Source: Vitis vinifera (taxonomy: Eukaryota > Streptophyta > Magnoliopsida > Vitales > Vitaceae). Taken from it: a stretch of 64,000 nt of DNA. Positions within the stretch are counted from its first letter, which is position 1. Every line of letters begins with the position of its first letter. Below, piece after piece: positions 2,073 to 53,440 of this stretch. A program made the position numbers and the translations under genes. The notes below the pieces were generated by a model that searched no databases, was not told the origin of the DNA, and saw only the letters and a program-made list of their open reading frames with translations. Location: positions 1,191,001-1,255,000 of the forward strand of contig NC_081818.1 of NCBI RefSeq assembly GCF_030704535.1, in the 5' to 3' direction.

Positions 2073-8276
<6,204 letters not shown>

Positions 8277-24111: not shown

Positions 24112-27100
24112 TCAATGCATCCATTGTAAGTGTCTGGATCGTTCTGAGGATTCTGAAGAACTTGAAGGAACTGCTATCGACAACTTTTCTTGGAATACCT
24201 GAGGATAAATGAGAAGTTGGTGGTGAAAATATGATCCCTATGTTTGGTTCTTCGGAAAATTTGGGGGAAAATATGAGTAAATGAAGTTGATATTTGAAGG
24301 AATTACCATTTCAAAATGTCCCAACTCTTTTCTTAGTTCTGCTTCGTCGCCCTCAGCTAATGGTTGTACAATGCCAGGCAGTAGAGACTGATCCTTTGTT
24401 TCGCTTACAATCTGTAAACAAGATTCGGGTTAATACAACGAAGAAAGTCAACAGAAGCAGCCCGACGTTACTGGGCTTATGGCAGGGGAAAACAATTCAG
24501 GCAAGATGATCAACCAAACGGAACCTCAAGTTTTCTCTTTAGTTGCCATACCCAAGGAAGAGAACAGCAATTTGAGTTATTCTGCTGTAATTTGGTGAGC
24601 TAAAACCCTATGCTATATGATTAAACATTCTTTGGTACTTTTTACTTGGAAGGAAGAAAAAGGATATCATCAGGCAGTATTTAAAGCCAAATAGGAACAT
24701 ACCAATTTGAATCCTTCACTGGAACGCGAAAATTCCATCCCTTGAATATTCAAGCCCCGATGCTTCTGTACTGCAATGGAAACACGTATAATTGCACAAA
24801 GCATTTTGAATTTCTCCTTTACCTGAATGTGCATGAGGGAAAAACTATTAACAATCACGACTTTTTTTGGGGTTAATACTGCTTAGTAAGCAGACTATCA
24901 TTTAGAGAATTACACATGCCATCACCTCTTTTGAGAATTCCTTAAGAGAACCATGATTGGGTTTCGGGAATTTCTTTCTGTGATGTCTTGCAAGTAACGC
25001 TATTAACTGCAGATTTTATAACGGTCATCAGCCTTGAGAGCACAACAAGAGTATAGGAGCATTAAGGACAAAGCATGATGGACAGGTAGATGGAGTACCT
25101 TGACTTCCTCAGTACTGTAACCATAAAGATGATCGCCATTCTGTAACAATAAAACTGAGCTCATTAGATTCTTAAGTCATATTCATCGAGCACTGTAGAT
25201 CACATAACAAAATTCTTGGAATTTTTAAAAGCATCTACCCGACTTTTGACCTATGCAAATGACAATATTGCTAATAATTCAATAACTTGCTATGCTATTG
25301 TCCGTTTCACTATTATCACCACATTGCATCTTTCACAACGTTTTCTCGTTTTGCCTTTTTGTTTTTTTGTTTTGACTTAGGAAGCACATTTGGGCTTAAT
25401 AATTTTCAAACATGTCATTATCCTATAGTGCCTATGCATGTTGTAAAAGCATTCAAGGAAAGGACGCAGGGTACATACCATGATGATATTACAAGACTGC
25501 TTATGGTAACCCTTTTCACCAGTAATGAGCCCGATATTGTGAAGCACACAGGCAGCTTCAAGGTATTCAAGATCCTTGTCATTCAAGGAGACAGGAAGTT
25601 TAACTTGATTTTCAGTTTCAGCAAGCGTATCACATTTTCTTAAACCTTCAAAAATCACCTGCAGAAGTAATCTGGTCAGAAAAATTAAAAAATCATCATA
25701 TGCTGCAAGGTAGTCTTTTTATACAATATGCTTTAACCGAGAGCACAAAGACCATCGATCCCCATCATATACAAAAATTTCATGTGAACCCTAATGAAGC
25801 TGCTAACTTCTAGGCTTAAATTAAATTACCCAATTGAAACACAAATGGGTTTACCACTTCTATCAAAAGTATCCAAAAGTTGATGTGGGTTTCTTGATTA
25901 AAGTTCCACTCTAAGATCAACACACAACACAACGATACACTACGTAGAAAGACGTCATATGAATCAAAATGAAGTAGTTAACATGTTAGACCTAGAAATT
26001 AGCCTGAAAACCAAAACTATTGGGTTGAAGATGAAGATCTTGTAATACCTTCCAAAGCAATCTAGTTAGAAAAATTCAAAAATCATCATATGCTGCAAGG
26101 TAGGCTTTTCCAATCATATGCTTTAACCAATAACACAAAGACAATCCATCTCCATCATATACAAAACTTTTGTGTAAACACAAATGAAGTTACAAACTTG
26201 TAGGCTTAAATTAACTTGGATTCAAAACTATCCGAAAGTTGGTGCAGGTTTCTTGATTAAAGTTTTACTCTAAGATCAACACGCAACAATGCTTTAACCA
26301 AGAGCACAAAGAACATCCATCTCCATCATACAGAAAATTTTACATGCACCCTAATGAAGCTGCTAACATGTAGACTTGAATTAACTAGGATTCGGAGATT
26401 AGCTAAATGAAACACGAATAGGGTTAGCACTTTTATCAAAACTATCCAAAAGTTGATGCGGGTTTCCTGATTAAGGTTCTCCTCTAAGATTAACACACAA
26501 CACACTAACGAGTTATGTAAAAGGATTTCGCATGAATCAAAATGTAGTGTACATGCTAGACCTAGAAATTAGTCCCAAAACCGAAACTATTGATTTGGAG
26601 GTGAAGATCTTGTAATACCTTCGTAATGTTAGCGCATTGAGAAGCAGTCCCCATCTTCTTCTTACCGAGAAACCTAGTCGCTAGGCGTACGACTGATCCC
26701 CATCTTGCATTAGCATTGAAATCATAGTTATCACAAACCTGCAATAACATTTCTGCAACCACACCCTCCCCCAATGCATACCCTGAAACCTCCATCTCCT
26801 CAATGTCTAGCATCGCAAATATTTCATCCAACAACACTGCACCCGCCACAATAAACTCCGATCGCCTCTTGAAAAACCGGTCTCTCCTAGCCCTCTCTAT
26901 GGCCTCTCCCCCTCCTCCACACAACCTCTCCACCAAAATTCTCAATTCCTCCCTGCTAAACCTCCAATCCCTCCCTAAATCCCCACACAATGCACCATCA
27001 TTGCTCACTACATTGCGCGAAAACCCTGAAAAAATGGCTTTTTCTATGGATTGAACTGTGCCTGATGAGCCAACAGCAATCTCAAAACCATGGTGTTTAA

Positions 27101-27722
27101 TCTTCTCAACAATTCCACATTGCCGAAGAATTGATCTAATGTGACTTCTCATTTGAAGAATTTCATTGTGATTCACAAATTTTTGGGTTAAATTAACGTG
27201 CCCTAGCTTCACAGACGTACCAAAAATTGCTTTCCCCTTTTGGCCAAGGAGAAACTCGGTCGACCCACCTCCTATGTCGATAACCAGAGCGGTTTTTTCA
27301 TAAATAGGGAGGAACTGGAGGGCACCAAGGTAAATTAACCGAGCTTCTTCCTCACCAGACAGGACTTCCACTTCGAACCCTACCTCGTCCCGGACTCGTC
27401 GGAGAAACTCCGCCTGGTTGCCGGCTTCGCGAACGGCGGCGGTGGCGACGGTCCTGTGGCGGTGGATCTCGTGGTTCTGCAGGAAATTCCGAAATTCTTT
27501 GAGGGCTTCGATTGCCCGAAGCTGGGAGTCGACGGCAGCTGCGGCGGACGCGGCTTGGCGGCCGAGGACGACGGGCTCTTTGAGGCGGTGGAGGTGGAGG
27601 AATTTTCCGGTGGAGGGGTTGAATTGGACGGTGAGGAGCTTGAAGGAATTGGTGCCCATGTCAATTGAGGCGAATAGGTTGGTGGGGTTTGCAGAAACTG
27701 TGGGAATAGGAACCGTCGCCAT
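24112..27722 (-). CDS. Ppx/GppA-family phosphatase (exopolyphosphatase-like), 7 exons
   Basis: Member of the Ppx/GppA family (ASKHA fold), which hydrolyses polyphosphate or pppGpp in bacteria. Coding exons: 27722-26619, 25658-25479, 25140-25099, 25006-24926, 24822-24703, 24411-24307, 24198-24112. Every exon is a multiple of three, giving 572 residues. Phosphate loop 1: IDMGTNSFK (20-28). SGEEEARL (122-129) holds the expected catalytic glutamate. Second loop: VIDIGGGSTEF (147-157). VGSSGT at 217-222 is the adenosine-type motif. The C-terminal part is HD-like but reads VLHNIG near 408, so the usual HD pair is HN; RHHRKK follows at 449. Start: ATG at 27,722; an in-frame TTG further upstream is not plausible in a plant. 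Exon 1 is GC-rich at its 5' end. The plant substrate is not known to me. Confidence 0.92.
25665..26618 (-). repeat. Triplicated segment filling intron 1 of the Ppx/GppA gene
   Basis: Three diverged direct copies, roughly 25,665-26,054, 26,055-26,288 and 26,289-26,618. Each shares blocks such as ATATGCTTTAACC, GCACAAAGA, CCATC.CCATCATA, AAGCTGCTAAC (or similar) and TTGATTAA. The first and third copies both end GAAGATCTTGTAATACCTT (plus strand); in the third this is the true exon 1 donor at 26,618, so the first carries a decoy donor near 26,050. Confidence 0.8.
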
Positions 27723-29234
27723 TGTCGTCTTCTTCCTCAAGCCCCTGTTGCAGAAACATTGAGACTACCTATACATATTGTCCGTTGCGTGACGTCAGCT
27801 GGAAGTTGATTAGCAATTTAACACGCAGGTTGTTGGAACTTGGAAGTGAGGTTGTAGAAGAAGTTAGAAATTGTGAACAAATTCCGGGTTTCTAATCATT
27901 TTCATATTTTTATTTAATTATTTATTTTGTAGGTATATTCCATGAAACATGCCTCCCCACTAATCACTTTGAAACTTCATAAGAAAAATCACTAAAATCC
28001 CTTTCAAATTTGAAAAATGTCCATAATTAATATTAATAAAAGATTTTTTTTAGAAATTAATATATTTTTGATATTATAAATAAATATTTTAATTGAATGA
28101 TAAAAAATTTTAGAAACAAAAAAAATATATAGAATTTCAAAATAGTTATTTTAATAAACGTGACATAATTTTTTTCAATGCTTGTGAGTTTATTTGAAAG
28201 AAAAAAAAGGACCAAATCATTGGGAAGTGTTTGTGACGTGTGATTTATATCACTTATGATGACAAGCTATTATGATAAAAAGGAAAATAAAAATAATTAT
28301 CATTATTATTTTGATTAAGGGCAATGATATAATCCATGTTCAAAAATTTTGAATATTGGGAAAATTATATTATTTAAATATTAAATAAAAAAATGTAAAT
28401 TCATAAAATATATTGCAAGACAAATTAATCATTTGTCCATGATTAGAAAATGTTTTTTTAATTATTACATTTATTTGTATTTTTTTCACAATATTTCTAT
28501 TTTTTTAAATAAGAAAAATAATTTGAGTCATAAATCATCCTTTGACTCATTTGTGGCCAAATTTACATTTTATTTGTTTTATTGTTTGAACAATGCTATA
28601 AATTTCAAGTTGCTTCCCTTATTTGCTATTGTGAGTAAATAAAACAATTTTATTTATATCATTTTGTCCTTTTGAATAATTTGTTATTGTTTTCTAATTT
28701 TGTTTATTTTCATGCTCCCATTAATAATTTTTTGTTGTTGGATTTGAGTGGTGGTTGAAGTTAAAATTAAAGTCATAATTCAATATTAATGTGATAAAAA
28801 AATTACTAAAAGGTAGCACTAAATTCGTTAATAAAAATGAGAAGTATTTGTACTTATGGTTCAAACACTATAAGACATTTAGAGTGTGTTTGAGAATGAT
28901 TATAGTAAGTGTTTTTATCATTTTTAACATTTAAAAATGATAAAATTTTTCAAGCATTAGAAATATTAAAAGCGCTTCATAAAATCACTATCAAACTAGC
29001 TCATTGAGCGCGTTTGAGAGTAATTATAAAAATGTTTTCTACCATTTCTAATACTTAGAATGATAAAATTTTTAAAATATTATAAATATTAAAAGCACTT
29101 TCTAAAATCACTACTAAACGGGCACTTCGCATATTTTATATAAATGAGTGTATGTATTAAAACACGATTAAAAAAAATGAGATTATAAAATACAAAAGAC
29201 GATCAGTAATGTAAGATTTCTTATAAAGACTTTA

Positions 29235-31558: not shown

Positions 31559-34500
31559 ATGGAGAGTTTGGCATCTCTCAAAAGGTGTTTTGGCCAGGAG
31601 CAGGATGGTGATGATGATTTTGGAGTTGCAGGTCAGGGGGAGAAGATGAAGAGGTTTAAATTCGCAAGGTAGATTGTTTAGTACTAGTTGAATTTGGGGT
31701 TAGTTTTGAGTTTTAGGGTTCTTGATGGGGTTTTCAATGTGGGTTTTTTGATGTTTGTGCAGTGCTGTTAGAGACGTGATGAGTGAACGTTTGCTGAAGG
31801 AGATGGCTCTAAGGATGGAACCTTTTTTCCGAGTGCTGGTATGACGAGTCCCTCTTTCTATTTCTAGACAAAATAAATTTAAACCATAGTGTCTTTTTAA
31901 GTTGTTCTTATTGCATCTTGTGTTGTTTCCTTTAGCGAAGCTTAATTAATTTGTGTCAAATTTAGAGAAAACCGACCCTTTCTGTGCCCTGGTTTCCATG
32001 CATGATGATATTTTCTGTTTTTATTGTTATATTTGAGGTTGGATCTGAAACAAATTACTAAATTTAGGTAAGAGTGGCTACCATGCCTTTTCCGAGCTTT
32101 GAATTGTTAACTGCCATTGGGTGATTTGGAGTTTTCCAAATTTTCATGAACTGTCCTAAAAAAATTATAGTGCTTTGATGGTTGCAAAATTTTGCTCTGT
32201 GAAGGGCCATTTTTTTTTATTGATTTTTCCTCGTTTGGTCTGTGTTGACCCGATTTAACTGGCTAGTATTGATGTGAATGAATGGTTGATTTCAACCTAT
32301 CAAGAAAACAGAGTAAGAAAAAAGAAACCGAATGAATGGGAAGTTTCAAGTTGTATGATTATGTAGATTTCTTAACTAATCATGTGTGCAATAAGACTAT
32401 AACTTAAGGTTAACATATCTGTCCTCTGAAAATCAGCTGAAATTAATATTGTTGCATGTTTGAAATCCTCTTTATAGCAATAGAAGATTTGATCTGTTCA
32501 TTGGTACTGATATAGATTACTGAAACAATTCATATTGAATCATATTTGTTTCCATTACTGTTTGCTAATTATTCTGCATATTGTTCCTGAGAAGGTGAGG
32601 GAGGAGGTGGAACGAGCAAGTCGGCTCTTTCTGAACGCATCTCCTGGGTTAGTTTTATCTGCCAATTCTTTGTTGTACTGTCTTCCTTGCAACATGCATG
32701 TCATAAAGGGTTTTTTTTTTTTTTTGGAGCATCAGTGCATCTCATGTGTTATGGATGTGTCATATTTTGATTTTATAAGCTTATTGGATCAACCGAATGA
32801 ATGGATCTTGTTTAATATCATCAGAGTTCTTTATGGTATACTGTTCTGATTTGAAGCATTTGATTTCATAGTACCATAGTTATTTTATAAGCAAATGTCT
32901 TCTGTCAAACACCCCTTACCTGCAGTCTGATATTGACTTTCATGCTAACTGTGTTGTAGACCTTCAAGTAATCAGATTGAGTCATCTGGAGTGAGGAACT
33001 GGCAGTTGCATTTTGCCAGTAAATTGCCCTCTAAAATTTTTACGGGCAGCAGGGTAGAAGCCGAAGGCAGTACATCTGTTAAAATAGTCATACTTGATGC
33101 TCGTTCTAAGGATATAATCACATCAGGTCCCCTATCTTCAGTTAAAATTGAGATTCTTGTCCTCGACGGTGATTTTGGTACTACCGATGATAATGAAGAT
33201 TGGACTGAGAGTGAGTTCAATACCAATATTGTACGTGAAAGGGAAGGCAAAAGGCCATTAGTGACTGGGGAGCTGTTTGTTACACTGAGATGTGGGGTTG
33301 GTTATATTGATGATGTCTCTTTTACTGACAATTCAAGCTGGATTAGAAGCCGGAAGTTCAGGTTAGGAGCTAGAGCTGTGTCAGGCATTTCCAAAGAAGT
33401 AAGGATTAGAGAAGCACGAAGTGAAGCTTTTGTGGTGAAAGATCATCGTGGGGAGCGTGAGTTTTTAAAACTTAACTTTATCCTTAGGACTTTTAACAAT
33501 AGATTTGTGACGATTAGATTCTAACCTTGCCATTTTCCCTAGATTTATAATTCTGTTTTTTTTTTTTTAACTGGTATGCATGAGAAATATCTCTGTGAAT
33601 TTTTTTAGTGCTTTGGTTTAACTATCAGAACATCTTTCTGAATCAGGTTTATGCTTTTAATATGCTTGTGTAAGTATCATGCTTGAGGATATCAGCTTAT
33701 GGTTTGTTGTTCAAACAAAACCTTGAAAATGACATACTCATAATCTGGATCTAGTAAAGAAATAGGTGGTGGGCACTTGCAATCCACATACAGAAACCAA
33801 GGGTTTGTTTGGTAACTGTTTTTAAAAACAATTTTGAAAATAGTTTTTTAGAATAGTTTTTGAAAATTGTTCTTTGATTTTTATAAAACAAAAGTCTGTT
33901 TGAAAACCTAAAATGTTTTTAACCTGTCTTTAATATTTTTAAAAATAATTTTTATATCTAATGTTTTATTTTTAATCATTCTACATGTTTTTATGATTAT
34001 TTCTTAAAACAACTCTCAGAAAACAAGTGAAAAAGATAGAAAAACAATTAAAAGATGTTCTCTAAAAATACTCTATTTTCTATTTTTAAGAATAGAAAAC
34101 AGAAAACAGTTTTGGTTGCCAAACATGGCTTTTGTGTTTTTTGTTCTGGAGGACAAAAAACTATTTTAAAAAACAATTCCCAAAAAAGCCCTAAGGTAAT
34201 CACTTAGGTCATAACTGAGGATACTTAATGGTTAATACTGTTACATGTTTTGAAACATATGCTGCGCATTAGTTATCTTGTAAAAAATCACATTCTTTTA
34301 GTGTTGTTGTCACTGTTGACAAACCACGAAATCTCTGTAGTGAAACATAATAAGTAGATTATTAGTATGCCACTTTCTTTGTCTGCTCTGCATCTACCTG
34401 TTTCATGCCTAATGTCTTTGATGTATTCCTTTTGGTGTGCTTGAATCTTGAAATATCTGTCCATAGGCGTTTGAATTTAATGTGGCCTATATTCAGTATA

Positions 34501-36385
34501 TTTTGCTTATGGATAGCCATAGCCATGATTCTAGGATTGACTGGTAATTTTTTCATTTAGTGTATAAGAAGCACCACCCCCCATCATTGGATGATAAAGT
34601 GTGGCGTTTGGAAAGGATTGCAAAAGATGGTGCCTCCCACAAGCGATTGGATTCTCATGGGATTCACAATGTGAAGGACTTCTTGCGGTTGTACGTAACT
34701 GATCAATCCTCACTACGCAAGGTAAGAGAAATTCTTTTTCTTGGATTGGAAACTATTTTTGAATTTCTACAATTTGCTTTTAAATGGTTGTCTAATCTCT
34801 TACTGTGGAAACTGTAGCTGCTTGGCAATGGGATTTCAAACAAGATATGGGAGATAATCATAGAACATGCTAATACCTATGTTGGAGATGAGGAGTTGTA
34901 TGTGTACTCCAGGGCTGGGGAAAGTCTTGGGGTCGTGCTCAGTTCAATCTATAAGATTGTTGGGTTAACATTTGATAGTCATAGTTATCAGGCTGTGGAT
35001 AAACTCACTATGCAGGAAAAGGTGCATTTTCTAGCCTGGCTTCTAATAAATCTTTGTTTTCAAAATGTTAGTTCTTCTTTATCTGGTTAACATTTGAAGT
35101 GTTTCTGCAGTCACTGAATTCCACTCATGTTATTGTCATTACTTTTGAAATCTGATCTTAGAAGTGTTGCTTTTGATTTGGAGCTGATAAACTTTCTGTT
35201 CCTTTGGCAGTTTTTGATGGAAGATTTGAAACGGCATGCCTATAAAAATGTGAATGACATTAAACCCTTCCCAACAAGGCCTTTGCCAACCATACAAACT
35301 GAAACATTCAACGATCCATGTCTACCCCTGCACAATTTCCCAGTCAGACATCAAGGTATGTGAAATTTCAGAAGTTAATAGTAATATACTTGTTCTTGGA
35401 CATTTTTTAGGGAACCCATAGCTGTTTTGCCCCATTTCCCATATCATTGAATTAACAAAATCATCTTGAGTGATCCTTTGCCTTCACTCTTAGAATTGAA
35501 CATCTGAGGTAGCTTTTTGACTGCTAGGAAATCTCCAAAGATGCCCATTATACTCTGCCCACTGTAGACGGCCTATCTTCAATATTGACGAAACAGATGA
35601 AAATTAACTGTTGAATGTAATTAGACCTTCATCATGATTAATTCCTCTGATACGTAGTCCTTCAATTGTGGCATGAAGAGGGTCCTGAGGGTTGTTTCCA
35701 ACTCTCACCTGTCACATTATATGAGCAAGCTACGCCATAGACTGTCCTTCCAGTCAAGTAGATTCTACTGGAATGATTGATCCCTCAAGTTTGCAGTTTT
35801 CCTTTTCCCATTTTCCCTACTATCGTTTAGTTCTTCTGGAAGCATCTAAGACAATATTTCTTTGCAGATCAATCTGATTCACAGATGGGATTTGACCAGT
35901 CACCATCTTCATCATACTATGACTGGGATGACAACAATCAAGAAGTAGTTTCTCTAGCTGCATGTCATCCACTGGAAGCATTGAGTCCAATGTTAAGGAG
36001 CAGTTTCATACTGAGGGACACTTACACAGGACCCTTCAATGGGGGTATTGGTTGGTCTTCAAGCGGGTCACCGGGGCCAGTTATGCCAAATGGTCATTTG
36101 GCTGCAGACGACACTTTCCAGTTTCAAACATCAACTTTATTTCCTGTTTCTGCCACATGGGGGCAAGGGAATAGTTTTTTCCTTGCTGCAAACAATGAAG
36201 CAGAGGTTGGCATTCTTTCCTCTCACCCCAATTTTGGCATCGGTATGTCAAGGAAAGGAAAACCTAGAGCAAGGTGGTGCAAGATTCGGGCTGCTCTTAA
36301 GTGGGGGATATCGGTTAGGCGAGATGTGGAAGCTAAGAGGATGATGCAAAAGCTTATTTTCTGCTCAACCCCGATTTGGGATTAA
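31559..36385 (+). CDS. Calmodulin-binding protein 60 (CBP60) family transcription factor, 8 exons
   Basis: Plant-specific DNA-binding regulator that responds to calcium through calmodulin; family members control salicylate synthesis and immunity. Coding exons: 31559-31668, 31763-31838, 32595-32647, 32960-33456, 34561-34721, 34818-35021, 35211-35355, 35868-36385. Phases agree throughout, giving 587 residues. N-terminus: MKRFKF basic patch, then [10 protein letters not shown] and [12 protein letters not shown] (about 63-74). The conserved CBP60 domain starts about 80 ([17 protein letters not shown]) and runs through [20 protein letters not shown] and [13 protein letters not shown] to about 375. 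The extreme C-terminus has [20 protein letters not shown] (from about 549), the basic amphipathic calmodulin-binding helix at the position typical of CBP60a-f rather than CBP60g. Exon 3 could instead begin 3 bases earlier. Intron 4 holds an AT-rich MITE. Confidence 0.93.
33801..34193. mobile_element. AT-rich MITE, family 3, in CBP60 intron 4
   Basis: Starts GGGTTTGTTTGGTAACTG and ends in CCAAAAAAGCCCTAA. Much of it is a long imperfect inverted repeat of AAAACAGTTTT / AAAACTATTTT words. Related copies lie at about 44,868-45,222, 45,834-46,230 and 51,560-51,950, with remnants near 22,200-22,680. Boundaries are approximate. Confidence 0.6.
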
Positions 36386-36956: not shown

Positions 36957-36962
36957 AATAAA
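36957..36962 (+). terminator. Probable poly(A) signal of the CBP60 gene
   Basis: AATAAA preceded by a T/G-rich stretch (TTGTTGTACATTTTG) about 570 bases after the stop codon. Position fits; cleavage site unknown. Confidence 0.45.
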
Positions 36963-37115
36963 ATGTATCTTTTTTAAAAGTTTATGTCAATTTTATTATC
37001 TCATTTATTGCTTTATTGCTTGAATATTACCTTTGGAATGCTCTTTGCCTGCAACTGCATTTTTGAAAGAGGCCAGTTCTCTGTGGTGTAGGTTCTCTGG
37101 TTTGATACCCTCTTC

Positions 37116-38550
37116 TAGGAATGGCAACGGGCGGGTTTGGGACGGGTCACCGCTATCCCATTCCTGTCCCAAAATATTTAGTTATTTCCCAAACCCGTCC
37201 CAAACCCGGGGCGGGGCGGGGCGGGGCTGAAGCAACTCATCACCAAAAGTATTGAAGATATCAGTTGAAGCCATAATAGAGGTCTTGGACAGAGCACTTC
37301 TAGGGTTCTTCATGGCCTTCACCAGCACCAACAACACTTTTTCTCTGCAAACACCACAAACATTAGCTGACCCCTATCTTCATTTTCCGAAAAACATTTC
37401 AAAATTAGAAATTCCCTTACAAGATCGGTGCCATCAGAGCGGAATGATACAGCGCAAACCGCCTAGCGTCATTCAGAGATTCACACACCTTGGCCTAATC
37501 CTTGGAATCCAATCACTCAGTCAAACCCTTCATTTCCAAACGAAATACACACAATTAACTCAAATCACAAGTTAATTTTCCCTCCAGAGGAGCCACTGAG
37601 AGAGGGAGACTTACAATTATCTGGGTTTTTGGGTCAGGCATGGCTTTAAGATTCTTAGAAGAGATGTAGTCAATGGTGGCATCTGCAGTTGGTGGCATCT
37701 GCAGTTGGTGGCAATGGAGCTTTGTTCTCATCATTCACACCAAAATCAGACTGTTTCTGAATTGAAACTACAACTTTCGCTTGCTTTTTGGGCCTTTCCG
37801 GTGTTGTCGGGAGAGCATTATCCAAAGACCTCAGAGCCATTTCTTTGAGAGAGAAAGAAACAGATCCAAACAGAGAGCATGTGTGTGTCCGAAAGATTGA
37901 AGCATTTGATTGATTTAAAGGAATCAATGGCTTTGACGATAAGATCTGCTTAGCCCCTATTAAGATTCGCAAGAAACGGATTCAAAACCCTAAATAGCAA
38001 CCCGAAAACTAATAGAAAAAAAAATCCTTCAATAATCTGAAACTGGAAATGGAAAAATCCTAAATCTCGTATCTCATTCCCGAATTAGAAACGAAATACA
38101 ATACCAAATCAAGGCATCATTCAACCAAAAAATCAACAAAAAATCTTACCGGTTTGTAGATACATGAAGATAATAGTTGTGATTCTTGATTTCTTGTGAA
38201 TATGGGATAAACAAGGATGAATCGAGAGGAAATGGATTTTCGAATGGATTATCTGATGGATTTTTCCATTGAGTGGGAGGAAAAACCCTAGCATCAACAG
38301 GAACGAGAACTGAGAGAAGAAGACCTAAAATGAGGAGAGGAAGCTAATATTTATAAGTGGGGGGTAAAGTAGTAATTTCATATTCGGGGTGGGCGGGGCA
38401 GGTCAAATTATAACTACACCCGACCCCGCCCCGAACCCGATTCGGGTTTTTTAAAAAATCTTGAACCCGACCCATCCCCGATTGCCATGTTCCTATACCC
38501 GTCCCAATAAGGGCGGGTGACCCGGGAAACCCGCGAAATTGCCATTCCTA
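37116..38550. mobile_element. hAT-type element with captured gene sequence (Pack-hAT)
   Basis: 1,435 bp bounded by a perfect 8-bp target duplication CCCTCTTC (37,108-37,115 and 38,551-38,558). The ends are inverted repeats: TAGGAATGGCAA on the left, TTGCCATTCCTA on the right. These are followed by long GC-rich subterminal stretches of GGGCGGGT / ACCCGCCC-like words, typical of one plant hAT group. There is no transposase. The interior (37,227 to about 38,380) is a piece of a host gene. The insertion sits in a tandem-repeat unit whose uninterrupted relatives (38,617 and 38,800) show the empty site. The element lies just downstream of the CBP60 gene. Confidence 0.88.
37227..37840 (-). pseudogene. 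Captured 5' part of an ARM-repeat superfamily gene
   Basis: Exon 1 (37840-37615) starts ATG and reads MALRSLDNALPTTPERPKKQ, then NDENKAPLPP. A 16-bp tandem duplication (37,675-37,706) then shifts the frame; beyond it the sequence still encodes IDYISSKNLKAMPDPKTQ and ends at GTAAGT. Exon 2 (to 37,421) encodes KVCESLNDARRFALYHSALM, with in-frame stops TGA and TAG upstream of it (the TAG probably a former Trp codon). Exon 3 (37344-37227) encodes EKVLLVLVKAMKNPRSALSK and TSIMASTDIFNTFGDELL, ending exactly at the GC-rich end of the transposon. I recognise this as the plant ARM-repeat family of At3g01450/At5g14790 type, from memory. Introns are kept, so capture was from DNA. A TATA-like CTTATAAATA (38,349-38,358, minus) suggests the promoter was captured too. 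Confidence 0.75.
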
Positions 38551-38574
38551 CCCTCTTCCTATCAAGTGATAATT

Positions 38575-38880
38575 GTTTTCAAAACTGTTTTTTAAAAACA
38601 TTATTCGACAGGCATAGGTTCTCTCGCTTGGTGCTCTCTTCCTATCTTCAACCTCTGTTTGAACTCATACTCTTTTGATTACCCTAAAAAAGTTTGAGTA
38701 CATGCTCTCAAGTTGCTTGAGAGCATGTACTCAAGTATTAGGTTTCTCAAAAGTTGTTTTCATAAATTGTTTTTTTAAAACATTTTGTATCAGGCATAGG
38801 TTCTCTCTTTTGGTGCTCTCTTCCTATCTTCAACCTTTGTTTGAACTCATCCCTTGTCCAAAATGATTACCCCAAAAAAT
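38575..38880. repeat. Two tandem units of about 185 bp
   Basis: Both units share a T/A-rich start (AAAACTG/AAATTGTTTTTTAAAA), then CAGGCATAGGTTCTCTC, GGTGCTCTCTTCCTATCTTC, AACCT.TGTTTGAACTCAT and GATTACCC.AAAAAA. A third unit is interrupted by the hAT element at 37,116, and the second is interrupted by the solo LTR at 38,893. Confidence 0.8.
38694..38734. repeat. Perfect hairpin, 19-bp arms
   Basis: TTGAGTACATGCTCTCAAG, then a 3-base loop TTG, then its exact complement. A relative of one arm, GAGTACATGCCCTCAAG, lies beyond the solo LTR near 41,728 without the second arm. No function can be assigned. Confidence 0.95.
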
Positions 38881-38892
38881 GATATAGGATTG

Positions 38893-41719
38893 TGTGGACC
38901 CCGCATTTCGGCTCATGCGTTTTCCACTCGATGGCAAGCTCAATTTTTATTTTAAAAATGATTTTTATTGATTAAGAAAATGACTTGGAATCGCCACTTA
39001 TTTTTGTTTTATTTTTAAAGGGTAAACAAAATAAGAAATAAAAACTCTAATTGTGACTCCTTATTTTGGAAAATGTGGTTTGTGAAAAACCGGATCAAGT
39101 TTGGGGGTCAGGTTACTTATCGGGAAGGTACGGTAAAGACCGTAACACCCCTCTATGTCCCTAAAGTCGGGTCTCTACTAATAAAATGAAGTAAGTATGA
39201 CAATTGATTGATTGAACATGGATACCGAACAATGATCAAAGGTGTGAAAACAAGACACGCATGATAACAAATAAATCGATAGACACAATCGAGTGCGAGA
39301 CGTACCTTAGTCACAAGCTTAACGCTATCATAAAGACGAGGTTAGTGCACAAGTACAGAATAATCGCGAGCAGAATAAATCAATAATGTATGACTATCGA
39401 ATCAATCAATCAATCAATCATAAAATCACATATGTCAAGCTCTCACCAAAGCCCGTTTTATTTTGCATAAATTAATATCACGAATTCCATTATTTTGGAA
39501 TTATGAAAAATTCATTCACTGCTTATTAAAATCAAGAGGAACATAAAATTATTTGAAAATCAGAGTGGAATTAAAACTATTCGAGAGAAAATTGGATTTT
39601 TGAAATTTATTTGAAAAATTGGAGTCTCGAAGATTACTTGAAAATCGGAGTTTTGAAAAATGAAATTTAAGAATTGGAATTTTGGATATTAAATTTACAA
39701 GAAATTTGATTTTGGAAATTAAATTTGAAAGAAATTAGAATTTTTGGAAATTAAATTTGAAAGAAATGAAATTTTGGAAATTAAATTGAAGGATTTGAAT
39801 TTTGAAAATTAAATTTGAAGGAAATCGGAATTCCGGAAATTAAATTTGAAAAAGATTGGAGTTTTAAAAATTAAATTTAGGAAATGGAATTTTAGAAATT
39901 AAATTTAAAAGAAGTTGGATTTTGAAAATTAAATTTGAAAGAATTTAGAATTTTGGAAATTAAATTTGAAAGAAATAAAATTTTGAAAATTAAATCGAAG
40001 AATTTGAATTTTGAAAATTATATTTGAAAAAGATTGAAGTTTTAAAAATTAAATTTAGTTTGGAGCTTTGAGAAGATTAAATTAAAACTGGAGTTTTGAA
40101 AAATTATCTTAACATTAAAATTTTGAAAATGAAATTTTTGGGTATCAAAAGTTAAAAGAAAGAAAATAAGAAAACAATAAAACAAAAGCCATATGGCCTT
40201 AGAATGGCCCAACGTGTACAAGCATACCTTTAATGAATCAAACAAATAGAAAAAGGTGTACAGGCATCATTTAATGAATAAACAAATAAAAAAAGTGCAC
40301 AGACATATTCTTTAATGAATAAACAAATAAAAAAAAGGTGTACATGCACATCGTTTAATGAATAAACAAATAAAAGAATGCATTACAAAATGCTAATGTT
40401 GCAGGCTTCACCAACTTATTGAACGGTTCAATGCTCATCTGTTCATCAATATGCAAAGCACGTTCTGGATTTTTCTTGTTCCCAAAAAGCAAGCGCATGA
40501 AGCTTAATGATGAGGTCTAGTTCGTCTTCCCCAGAGCTAGCACGGTAACATCAGGTTGTAGGTAGCTGAAACATCTCAGCCTGCAGCGAAGCAAGCCTCC
40601 AGCAAGCTTCACCATGCTGTCCAATATAGAGATTCCAACCAAAAACGGAAACGGCATAATCTCCCATGCTACGTCCACTAAAGGTCAACTTCAGAGGGCG
40701 CCCTCTTGCTCCTTTCCTTTGTCCCCTTCCCTAGAAAAATCTCTCCTCTGTCCTCAACTCTCTAAGGCTCCTTTCCCAGTTGGCCGACCACCAGGAAAAT
40801 CGCAGCGAAAGCACCCCCCTGCTCAAAGTGTCCTCTCCAAGCTAAAAGAAAAATACCCTTAGAAACCTGTCTCCTCTCGTCTCTAGCCTAAACTCTCCCC
40901 TCAAGCTAACTCCCCCCCCCCCCCCCCCCCCCTCCCCCAAAAAAAATAAATAAATCTCCCAAAATTAGCCCCAAAACACCCTTGCCCCGGCAAAATCAAA
41001 AGAATAAACACTAAGGCATGAACTAGAGTGAAAATTGAGGGTAGAACAAACAGGTGAGCATGCAGCACATGAATGTACATGATCTCATATCAGGTGATGT
41101 TCATGGGCTCAAAACAGGTGGGATAAGGGAGAAAATTAAATCAATTCATACCAATCCATGTACGTGATAACCTCAAATGAAATCCAAGAGAATGAGATAT
41201 TAGCAGGGCAAACATATCCAAACAGAAAATGAAACGATCAATGAACATGTGAACAAGCCAGAAATTAACAAAACTTATATATGACTCCTGTTATCCATAA
41301 GACAAGCGGGACCCCAAGTAGCAAGAGAAGAAAATGAAAGATCAATGATAATGAAGATGAACAAGAGGTACACAGTAAACTTATCTGAGAGTTCTTTCAC
41401 AGTTCTTGCCTGGCCGGCGAATGCCCCTTTCCCCAGCTAAACGAATACTCCCTCCAGCTCTCCGGTTTCTTCTTCTCCTTCTCCAGTCCCCCCCCCCCCC
41501 CCCCCCCCCCCCTTCCTCCCTCCTTTTTTAGTCCACAACTCTCTCTTATCTGCTACTAGCTTCACTGTTCTTGGCTCAGCAAATAAGAACCACCACTATG
41601 GCAAGGCGGTGGTCTCCTCGACCATGCGTCCCATGTGGCTTGCTCTTTCGGAAACTGGCCCCTACTCCAAAAAAATGAAATCTTCAGCCAACTCTCGGTA
41701 GCCCAAAAAGGGGTCTACA
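38893..41719 (+). mobile_element. Solo LTR of a retrotransposon, about 2.83 kb
   Basis: Starts TGTGGACCCC and ends GGGGTCTACA, the inverted TG...CA ends of an LTR. Flanks GATTG (38,888-38,892) and GCTTG (41,720-41,724) match at 4 of 5 bases, a decayed target duplication. There is no gag/pol reading frame and no second LTR, so internal sequence was probably lost by LTR recombination. It contains an AT-rich minisatellite (39,590-40,080), a CAATCAATCAAT run and two pure C tracts (40,912-40,932 and 41,488-41,512). A diverged piece of the same LTR start is at 52,556. Confidence 0.75.
39590..40080. repeat. AT-rich minisatellite inside the solo LTR
   Basis: About a dozen imperfect units near 35-40 bp built on GGAAATTAAATTTGAAAGAA followed by an ATTTGAATTTT-like piece. 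Directly visible. Confidence 0.8.
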
Positions 41720-52555: not shown

Positions 52556-53440
52556 CGTGGACCCTGCATTTCTGCTTATGTGCTTTCACTCAATGATAAA
52601 CTCGCTTTTTATTTGAAAATGATTTATTTATTAAGAAAATGACTTGTAGTCGCAACTTTTTTTTGTTTTATTTTTAAAGGGTAAACAAAATAAGAAAAAA
52701 AAAACCCTAAGTGTGACTCTTTATTTGAAAAATGTGGTTTATGAAAAACCAAATATGGGTTCGGGGGTTACGTTACTTATCGGGAAGGTACGGTAAAAAC
52801 TGTACTACCCCTCTAAGTCCCTAAAAACATGTATCTACTGATGAAATGAGACAAGTATAACAATTAATTGATCAAATATAGATACTGAATGAATATCAAT
52901 CAAAACAAAATAATCGAATGAACAAGAGAAGCAAATAGTGTACCTGATTGATGAACGGATTTGTTTCATGACAACAAAGGTTAGTAAACAAACACAGAAT
53001 AATTACATGCGTGTCATAGAGTGGAATAAGTCAATTATGTATAGCAATCAATCAATCAATCAATCAATGAGAGAATCACATATGTTGAGCCCCCACCAAG
53101 GCTCGATTTATGTTTTGTATGAATTAATCCTATGAATTTTGATTATTCGAAATTACAAAATTAAATATACACTTATTTCAAAACATTTTAAAAAAAATGT
53201 GAAAATTGTTTGCGGAAGAAAATGACAACAACTTTTATTTGAAATGGGATTTTTGGTGACTTAAAATTCTAAGGAAGAATGAGAATTTGAAGAATTAAGA
53301 TCATTGGAATAACTAAAATTTAGAAAATTATTTGCAAAGTGGTACTGGGAAATTATTTTTAAAATGAAAGTGAGGGAATTGGTAGAGCGACACGTGGCCT
53401 AAAGGTGGCCATGCAAAAAAAAGAAAAAAGAAAAAGATCA
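52556..53440 (+). mobile_element. Truncated LTR fragment related to the solo LTR
   Basis: Begins CGTGGACCCTGCATTTCTGC and follows 38,893 onward (GGGAAGGTACGGTAAA, CCCCTCTAAGTCCCTAAA, a CAATCAATCAATC run, AATCACATATGTTGAGC). It fades by about 53,440 and never reaches the right LTR end. Confidence 0.7.

What the first reader, a model, noticed from the sequence alone, without database searches (positions are those of the whole stretch)
37116..38550. A hAT-type element that captured the front of an ARM-repeat gene
Ends, 8-bp target duplication and GC-rich subterminal words mark a hAT element. Its whole interior is host gene sequence: TATA-like box, leader with intron, and three exons with introns kept. 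Gene capture is well known for MULE and Helitron elements and less so for hAT, and here both boundaries are visible. The third exon stops exactly at the subterminal GC repeat, which marks the capture junction.
Basis: partly seen in the sequence, partly recalled or inferred. Interest (0 to 1): 0.8.

Follow-up and report, generated by a model that had tools for sequence, protein, structure and literature searches.

The report
Grape jumping gene carrying gene front
A small grapevine jumping gene has swapped its own enzyme gene for the front part of a microtubule-related plant gene and has since copied itself to at least eight places; this is a clear case of a kind of gene capture already described in grapevine.

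Summary
The finding is real, with one important correction. Window 37116-38550 is a complete non-autonomous hAT element: perfect 12-bp inverted ends (TAGGAATGGCAA), an 8-bp target duplication (CCCTCTTC) and GC-rich arms. Its minus strand carries exons 1-3 (exon 3 in part) and two introns of a TOG/CLASP_N (ARM-like) gene.

The window's own genome (496 Mb, grape by protein matches) holds the intact parent gene on another contig, 96.5-97.8% identical. It also holds seven further complete copies with the same cargo, each with its own target duplication.

The capture covers only about 705 bp (37227-37931), not the whole interior. The TATA box and leader (37932-38550) belong to the transposon: the block recurs at 31 other loci without the TOG piece, and the parent's upstream sequence is unrelated. 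At L034, one of those loci, hAT transposase ORFs lie downstream of the block on the same strand. So the gene front sits behind what is probably the transposase promoter. Microhomology at the joins (3 and 5 bp) suggests template switching.

The window copy is decayed: frameshift duplication, two stops, C-to-T excess. Large relatives (9.4-12.5 kb) with variable interiors resemble the published Hatvine-6 family. New member of a known kind.

The parts
37108..37115 (.). target-site duplication, left copy CCCTCTTC
   Evidence: identical to 38551-38558
37116..37127 (+). left terminal inverted repeat TAGGAATGGCAA
   Evidence: 12/12 complementary to 38539-38550
37116..37226 (.). left arm, GC-rich subterminal region; 40-91 bp shorter than in the seven sister copies, with the loss between GGGGC repeats
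   Evidence: GC 0.60; alignment with 7 sister copies
37227..37931 (-). captured stretch (705 bp here, 689 bp in the parent) of the TOG/CLASP_N gene: about 90 bp of 5' leader, exons 1-2, part of exon 3, introns 1-2
   Evidence: parent locus L009 matches element positions 109-830 only; 96.5% identity over 689 aligned bases
37615..37840 (-). captured exon 1, with a 16-bp tandem duplication causing a frameshift
37674..37705 (-). 16-bp tandem duplication, present in 1 of 8 copies (the window's) and absent from the parent
37421..37527 (-). captured exon 2, with stops at 37515 (TGA) and 37497 (TAG)
37227..37344 (-). captured exon 3 (part), open, ending ...GDELLQ at the arm
37224..37226 (.). left capture junction; GGG shared by parent and element
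37932..37936 (.). right capture junction; TTTGA shared by parent and element family
   Evidence: same junction in 8 of 8 copies
37932..38383 (-). the transposon's own promoter and leader block, in the same direction as the transposase ORFs seen at L034
   Evidence: shared with 31 loci without TOG sequence; transposase on the same strand in L034
38348..38355 (-). TATA-like box TATAAATA of the transposon
   Evidence: present in 29 of 30 family loci examined and 8 of 8 TOG copies
38384..38550 (.). right arm, GC-rich subterminal region
   Evidence: GC 0.56, 6 ACCCG words
38539..38550 (-). right terminal inverted repeat
38551..38558 (.). target-site duplication, right copy CCCTCTTC

Best explanation
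This is a non-autonomous hAT element (a Pack-hAT) derived from a large hAT family of grape. In an ancestor of this copy, 689 bp of a TOG/CLASP_N gene lying on another contig (5' leader end, exons 1-2, part of exon 3, introns 1-2) came to stand in the middle of the element, where relatives have other sequence and, further on, the transposase. The TIRs, the GC-rich arms and the promoter/leader block were kept (shown). The joins carry 3 and 5 bp of microhomology, so template switching or gap repair is the likely route (inferred). The new element was then moved in trans by a family transposase (inferred; stop-free transposase ORFs exist in a relative with the same ends) and multiplied to at least eight sites (shown). 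Because the cargo lies in sense behind the probable transposase promoter, copies with an open frame could make a truncated TOG protein with a tail read from the arm (inferred). The window copy cannot, being frameshifted and interrupted by stops (shown). The C:G-to-T:A excess in the copies suggests they are methylated and silenced (inferred).
For: Ends and TSD. Parent gene: L009 matches all of the 297-aa protein P0002 in pieces and matches the element only at positions 109-830. Eight complete copies (window plus L041-L047, 1257-1517 bp), each with 12/12 TIRs and its own 8-bp TSD, exact in 7 of 8 and one base off in L045. Same two junctions in 8 of 8 copies. Within the captured part, 5 differences from the parent are fixed in all copies, which points to one capture. 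The right block is at 31 other loci without TOG; 19 of 31 show the older continuation by a set pattern (20 by eye). Transposase with Dimer_Tnp_hAT and hAT RNase-H domains on the same strand in L034, a 10.8-kb element whose TSD CATCCTGT is the same at both ends, with one mismatch in its left TIR. Of 61 private substitutions, 45 are C:G>T:A and 2 the reverse.
Against: No expression, small-RNA or methylation data were available. Mobilisation by this transposase is inferred from shared ends only. The TIR has A, not G, at position 5 of the recalled hAT consensus YARNG. Other capture routes are not excluded: the joins of independent captures were not compared with their parents. That the right block is the transposase's promoter rests on position, direction and a conserved TATA word, not on a transcript.
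Confidence: 0.92

Rival explanations
1. The whole interior, promoter included, is host gene sequence taken as one piece.
For: A TATA-like box and leader lie upstream of the ATG in the right direction.
Against: The right block 37932-38550 recurs at 31 loci without TOG sequence, and TATAAATA is kept in 29 of 30 of them. The parent's upstream sequence departs from the element within about 105 bp of the ATG.
Confidence: 0.02
2. The capture came from two neighbouring hAT insertions on either side of the TOG gene front that were mobilised together (the model of Gisby and Catoni), not from template switching.
For: This model is supported for Pack-TYPE elements in rice and maize (PMC8903248 section 9).
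Against: Both joins fall at short microhomologies (GGG, TTTGA). The right join lies inside element sequence whose older continuation is still seen at 19 of 31 loci. An exact search for the TIR core (GGAATGGCAA or its complement) found none in the 8.5 kb around the parent.
Confidence: 0.25
3. The chimeric TOG fragment is a working new gene in grape, kept by selection.
For: Four of 8 copies have the three exons free of stops, one of these with a damaged splice acceptor. Protein entries end in arm sequence: P0001, P0124, P0127, P0133, P0185.
Against: The piece holds only the first four predicted helices of the TOG domain. Copies show decay: 45 of 61 private changes are C:G>T:A. The database entries carry only names such as 'hypothetical protein' or none.
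Confidence: 0.05

Closest known systems
Hatvine-6 (hAT-6_VV), grapevine (Benjak et al. 2008, PMC2528002; abstract, sections 6 and 10 and passages seen)
   Same: Grapevine hAT family of variable length sharing transposase and TIRs, with interiors that are unique or shared by few copies and match genic exons and introns.
   Different: The paper's table gives TIR 13 bp and TSD 9 bp for Hatvine-6; here 12 and 8. The TOG cargo is not mentioned in the sections seen.
Pack-hAT elements of maize and rice (Gisby and Catoni 2022, PMC8903248; abstract, sections 8 and 9 and passages seen)
   Same: hAT elements without transposase, with TIR, 8-bp TSD and captured host gene pieces, some in large clusters.
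   Different: Found in grasses. Here the cargo lies in sense behind a retained promoter block of the element; I did not see that arrangement described in the parts read.
Pack-hAT-N8_XT of frog (Tan et al. 2021, PMC8277862; passages seen)
   Same: Multicopy hAT carrying a gene's 5' piece, distinct TSDs; the paper reports microhomology at breakpoints of many Pack-TIRs.
   Different: Animal; cargo 291 bp of 5' UTR, three copies.
hAT element with captured histone H3 in Pseudocercospora fijiensis (Dhillon et al. 2019, PMC6710886; abstract seen)
   Same: Host gene amplified by a hAT transposon and the copies mutated, the original kept.
   Different: Fungal, hundreds of copies, decay by RIP.

Membership tests
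hAT superfamily | 8-bp target-site duplication | tested here: met
   CCCTCTTC on both sides; 8-bp duplications at 7 sister copies, one of them with a single mismatch
hAT superfamily | short terminal inverted repeats | tested here: met
   12/12
hAT superfamily | TIR consensus YARNG (recalled, from no call) | tested here: inconclusive
   TAGGA fits four of five positions; position 5 is A at both ends
hAT superfamily | transposase with hAT C-terminal dimerisation domain in a member with the same ends | tested here: met
   L034: PF05699 E=5.4e-32 and PF14372 E=8e-31, in an element with the same right end, a left TIR one mismatch off and the same TSD at both ends
Pack-TYPE / Pack-hAT | no transposase of its own | tested here: met
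   The 1435 bp are arms, TOG cargo and promoter/leader block; the stop-to-stop ORF list of the window shows no ORF of 120 aa or more inside it
Pack-TYPE / Pack-hAT | captured host gene piece with parent elsewhere in the genome | tested here: met
   L009 on contig C5, 96.5-97.8% identical to the eight copies over 685-689 bases
Hatvine-6 | common transposase and TIRs with variable, partly genic interior | tested here: met
   31 loci share the right block. With L010 as reference, 23 of the 30 others also match its upstream part (which holds its transposase ORFs; L013 only outside them), while the stretch between differs (fetched stretches end at different points). DUF707 exons in L012
Hatvine-6 | TIR 13 bp, TSD 9 bp as printed in the paper's table 2 | tested here: not met
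   12 bp and 8 bp here; so not filed as Hatvine-6, only as like it
Hatvine-6 | sequence match to Repbase hAT-6_VV | not testable with these tools
   Repbase not held
TOG/CLASP_N gene family (cargo) | homology of the captured piece and TOG fold of the parent-type protein | tested here: met
   305 homologues at E <= 0.001; P0002 has PF12348 E=4.6e-10; its model matches the CLASP1 TOG2 crystal structure, Foldseek E=3.5e-6. The 145-aa captured piece alone gave no Pfam or PDB sequence hit

The most novel reading that the evidence does not exclude
A grape hAT family repeatedly replaces its transposase reading frame with host gene fronts placed in sense behind its own promoter, so the family acts as an exon-trap that issues chimeric transcripts, or small RNAs that act in trans on parent genes such as the TOG gene.
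Probability: 0.1. Interest if true: 0.7.

Novelty: new member of a known kind. Interest (0 to 1): 0.42.

Why it matters
It is an unusually complete natural record of gene capture by a hAT transposon in one genome: the intact parent gene, both joins, relatives that keep the older sequence at one join, eight daughter copies with separate insertion scars, and a transposase-bearing relative. That makes the capture route testable. It also warns gene annotators, since grape protein lists already contain entries that are transposon chimeras.

Tried and rejected
Rejected: capture of the gene's own promoter (refuted by the family loci and the parent locus). Rejected: a retrocopy, since both introns are kept. 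Considered: chance TIR/TSD (12-bp ends: 0 in 50 resamples; 10-bp ends: 3 in 50). The local repeat at 38582-38850 gives only a weak look at the empty site: 32 bases at 84% identity, crossing the join by 5 bases.

Corrected during checking: one search counted 8 differences fixed in all copies, but 3 of them lie right of the TTTGA join; within the captured part there are 5. Identity to the parent over the captured part alone is 96.5-97.8%; over the slightly longer match it was 96.2-97.5%.

Led nowhere: Pfam and PDB sequence searches with the 145-aa fragment (0 hits); viral contigs pattern scan (0 hits); literature search for the TIR sequence (3 unrelated papers) and for LOC100853515 (0). The source of the L038 interior (about 470 bp with no match longer than 80 bases in the other 39 loci compared) was not found, because nine requests did not complete. 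My early protein-level reading of P0195 as a DUF707 piece fused directly to the arm was weakened: in the genome the DUF707 exons lie about 1 kb from the arm, so the entry is probably a gene-prediction splice. Of five large-element end pairs checked, three had the same TSD at both ends (L023, L024, L034) and two did not (L012, L015).

Full report
What was checked. The window lies in a 495.6-Mb assembly of 21 contigs (C14:1191001-1255000). The closest named protein relatives are Vitis vinifera entries, so I take it as grape; the assembly itself is unnamed. The element at 37116-38550 has 12-bp perfect inverted ends and an 8-bp duplication CCCTCTTC. No other such pair is in the window and none came up in 50 first-order resamples.

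The cargo. On the minus strand lie exon 1 (37840-37615), exon 2 (37527-37421) and part of exon 3 (37344-37227), with GT-AG introns of 87 and 76 bp. They correspond to the first 145 residues of a 297-residue protein found across flowering plants: 305 proteins at E <= 0.001 among 479 candidates, 120 of them listed. The full-length relative P0002 carries CLASP_N. Its predicted structure (mean pLDDT 84) matches TOG domains of CLASP proteins. The captured piece holds the disordered start and the first four helices, ending just after helix 122-144.

The parent gene. The genome search gave 44 matches; the tool scored 40 of 83 candidates, so counts are lower bounds. One locus, L009 on contig C5, matches element positions 109-830 only. 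All of P0002 matches it in pieces. Over the captured part alone the eight copies are 96.5-97.8% identical to it, on 685-689 bases.

The copies. Besides the window, seven loci (L041-L047) hold complete elements of 1257-1517 bp with perfect TIRs. Their 8-bp duplications are GGTGTTGA, GTTACTCT, ATATTGTG, ACTACCAC, CTTACGTA/CTTATGTA, CACCCAAC and ATTGAAGG. All eight share both capture joins. Five differences from the parent within the captured part are fixed in all of them, so one capture followed by spread is the simplest history. Grape protein entries P0001, P0124, P0127 and P0133 and the unnamed entry P0185 run from ...GDELLQ straight into arm sequence. P0124 and P0185 end in GFGTGLGNN, which the window's own arm also encodes at 37207-37181.

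The correction. Thirty-one further loci (L010-L040) match the element in its right part but not in the TOG part. The match starts at position 817 (window 37932) in 20 of 31 and at 825-867 in 11. The right end was found in 30 of 31; L040 matches only to position 1017. Three also match the left arm (L036, L037, L038). A set pattern for the older continuation into non-TOG sequence is met at 19 of 31; I counted 20 by eye. TATAAATA is kept in 29 of 30 and the exact right TIR in 24 of 30. The parent gene's upstream sequence is unrelated to this block. In L034 the transposase lies on the same strand as the cargo, in two stop-to-stop frames of 255 and 433 codons. They carry Dimer_Tnp_hAT, the hAT RNase-H fold and a zf-BED match just below its cut-off. 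So the TATA box and leader are the transposon's own, probably its transposase promoter (inferred). The capture put a gene front behind it.

How the capture happened. At the left join parent and element share GGG; at the right join they share TTTGA. Short microhomology fits template switching or gap repair, as reported for animal Pack-TIRs (PMC8277862, passages). The rival model of two neighbouring insertions (PMC8903248 section 9) is less favoured: the right join cuts into element sequence that relatives still have, and an exact search found no TIR core in 8.5 kb around the parent. It is not excluded.

State of the copies. The window copy has a private 16-bp duplication that shifts the frame (1 of 8 copies) and stops at 37515 and 37497. 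Its left arm is 40-91 bp shorter than in the sister copies, with the loss between GGGGC repeats; three sisters (L042, L044, L047) have smaller arm deletions of their own. Four of 8 copies (L044-L047) have stop-free exons, one of these (L045) with an AA acceptor; L041 and L042 have one stop each; L043 has one stop and an unclear acceptor. Of 61 private substitutions (seen in one copy only) 45 are C:G>T:A and 2 the reverse, as expected of methylated DNA (inference).

The wider family. Three large relatives have the same TSD at both ends: L023 (C7:3611470-3620879, 9.4 kb), L024 (C10:15224404-15236857, 12.5 kb) and L034 (C15:1881941-1892778, 10.8 kb, left TIR one mismatch off); lengths are computed by me. 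Two other pairs (L012, L015) did not match. With L010 as reference, 23 of the 30 other right-block loci also match its upstream part, while the stretch between differs. DUF707 exons lie in L012, and further matches lie about 10-18 kb from the right ends of L011, L013, L014 and L015. Two short complete elements, L036 (1413 bp) and L038 (1298 bp), have the same ends (one mismatch in the left TIR of L036) and interior stretches absent from the TOG copies; their sources were not found. This agrees with the description of Hatvine-6, which shares transposase and TIRs but has interiors often matching genic and non-genic grape sequence (PMC2528002 section 10). The paper's TIR and TSD lengths (13, 9) differ from those here, and no sequence comparison was possible, so I do not file it as Hatvine-6.

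Novelty. Capture by hAT elements is in print for grapevine, rice and maize, animals and fungi. A 2026 review of plant gene capture (PMC13317346, passages) has no whole-word match for hAT. Searches for 'Pack-hAT' (2 papers), 'Hatvine' (4), LOC100853515 (0), AT4G15830 (2) and gene-capture terms (16, 8, 3 and 20 listed of 65) did not show this TOG-carrying element in titles or abstract starts; I read only the parts named, and the library lacks most subscription papers. It is a new, well-documented member of a known kind.

Noticed in passing
32949-36385: A plus-strand gene with a CBP60-type calmodulin-binding domain (PF07887, E=6.9e-60 at 32949-33521) seems to end at 36385 (last exon inferred, no domain hit), with an AATAAA at 36957. 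The element starts about 160 bp beyond that word with its promoter facing the gene's 3' end, so read-through would be antisense to it.
   Followed up: partly
L034:237-2340 and C15:1881941-1892778: A 10.8-kb hAT relative with the same TSD at both ends and transposase frames without stops; a possible autonomous source.
   Followed up: partly
L022, L023, L024, L011, L034 (variable interiors): A long coiled-coil-like coding stretch (395 aa open in L011) recurs in the interiors of several large family members. It is unidentified (only a weak Pfam match below cut-off) and may be another captured gene.
   Followed up: partly
L012; C10:2306275-2307677: DUF707 gene exons lie about 1 kb from a left arm of the same hAT family; similar pairs lie on the contigs of L011, L013, L014 and L015. 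Grape protein P0195 (CK203_042282) looks like a gene-prediction fusion of the two.
   Followed up: partly
P0001, P0124, P0127, P0133, P0185: These protein database entries (four named as Vitis vinifera) are chimeras of TOG exons and transposon arm, so transposon copies are listed as proteins.
   Followed up: yes
38582-38668 and 38764-38850: An 87-bp repeat (89% identical, 182 bp apart) adjoins the insertion; the left flank resembles part of the same unit.
   Followed up: partly
38964-39239 and 52623-52899: Two dispersed repeat pairs (81 nt at 93% and 141 nt at 79% identity) at the same spacing, like parts of one repeated element.
   Followed up: no
26562-27764: Minus-strand reading frame of 400 aa with a Ppx/GppA phosphatase domain (E=6.6e-49).
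   Followed up: no
2916-6848: Minus-strand reading frames with DEAD and Helicase_C domains; looks like a RecQ-type helicase gene (name from recall).
   Followed up: no
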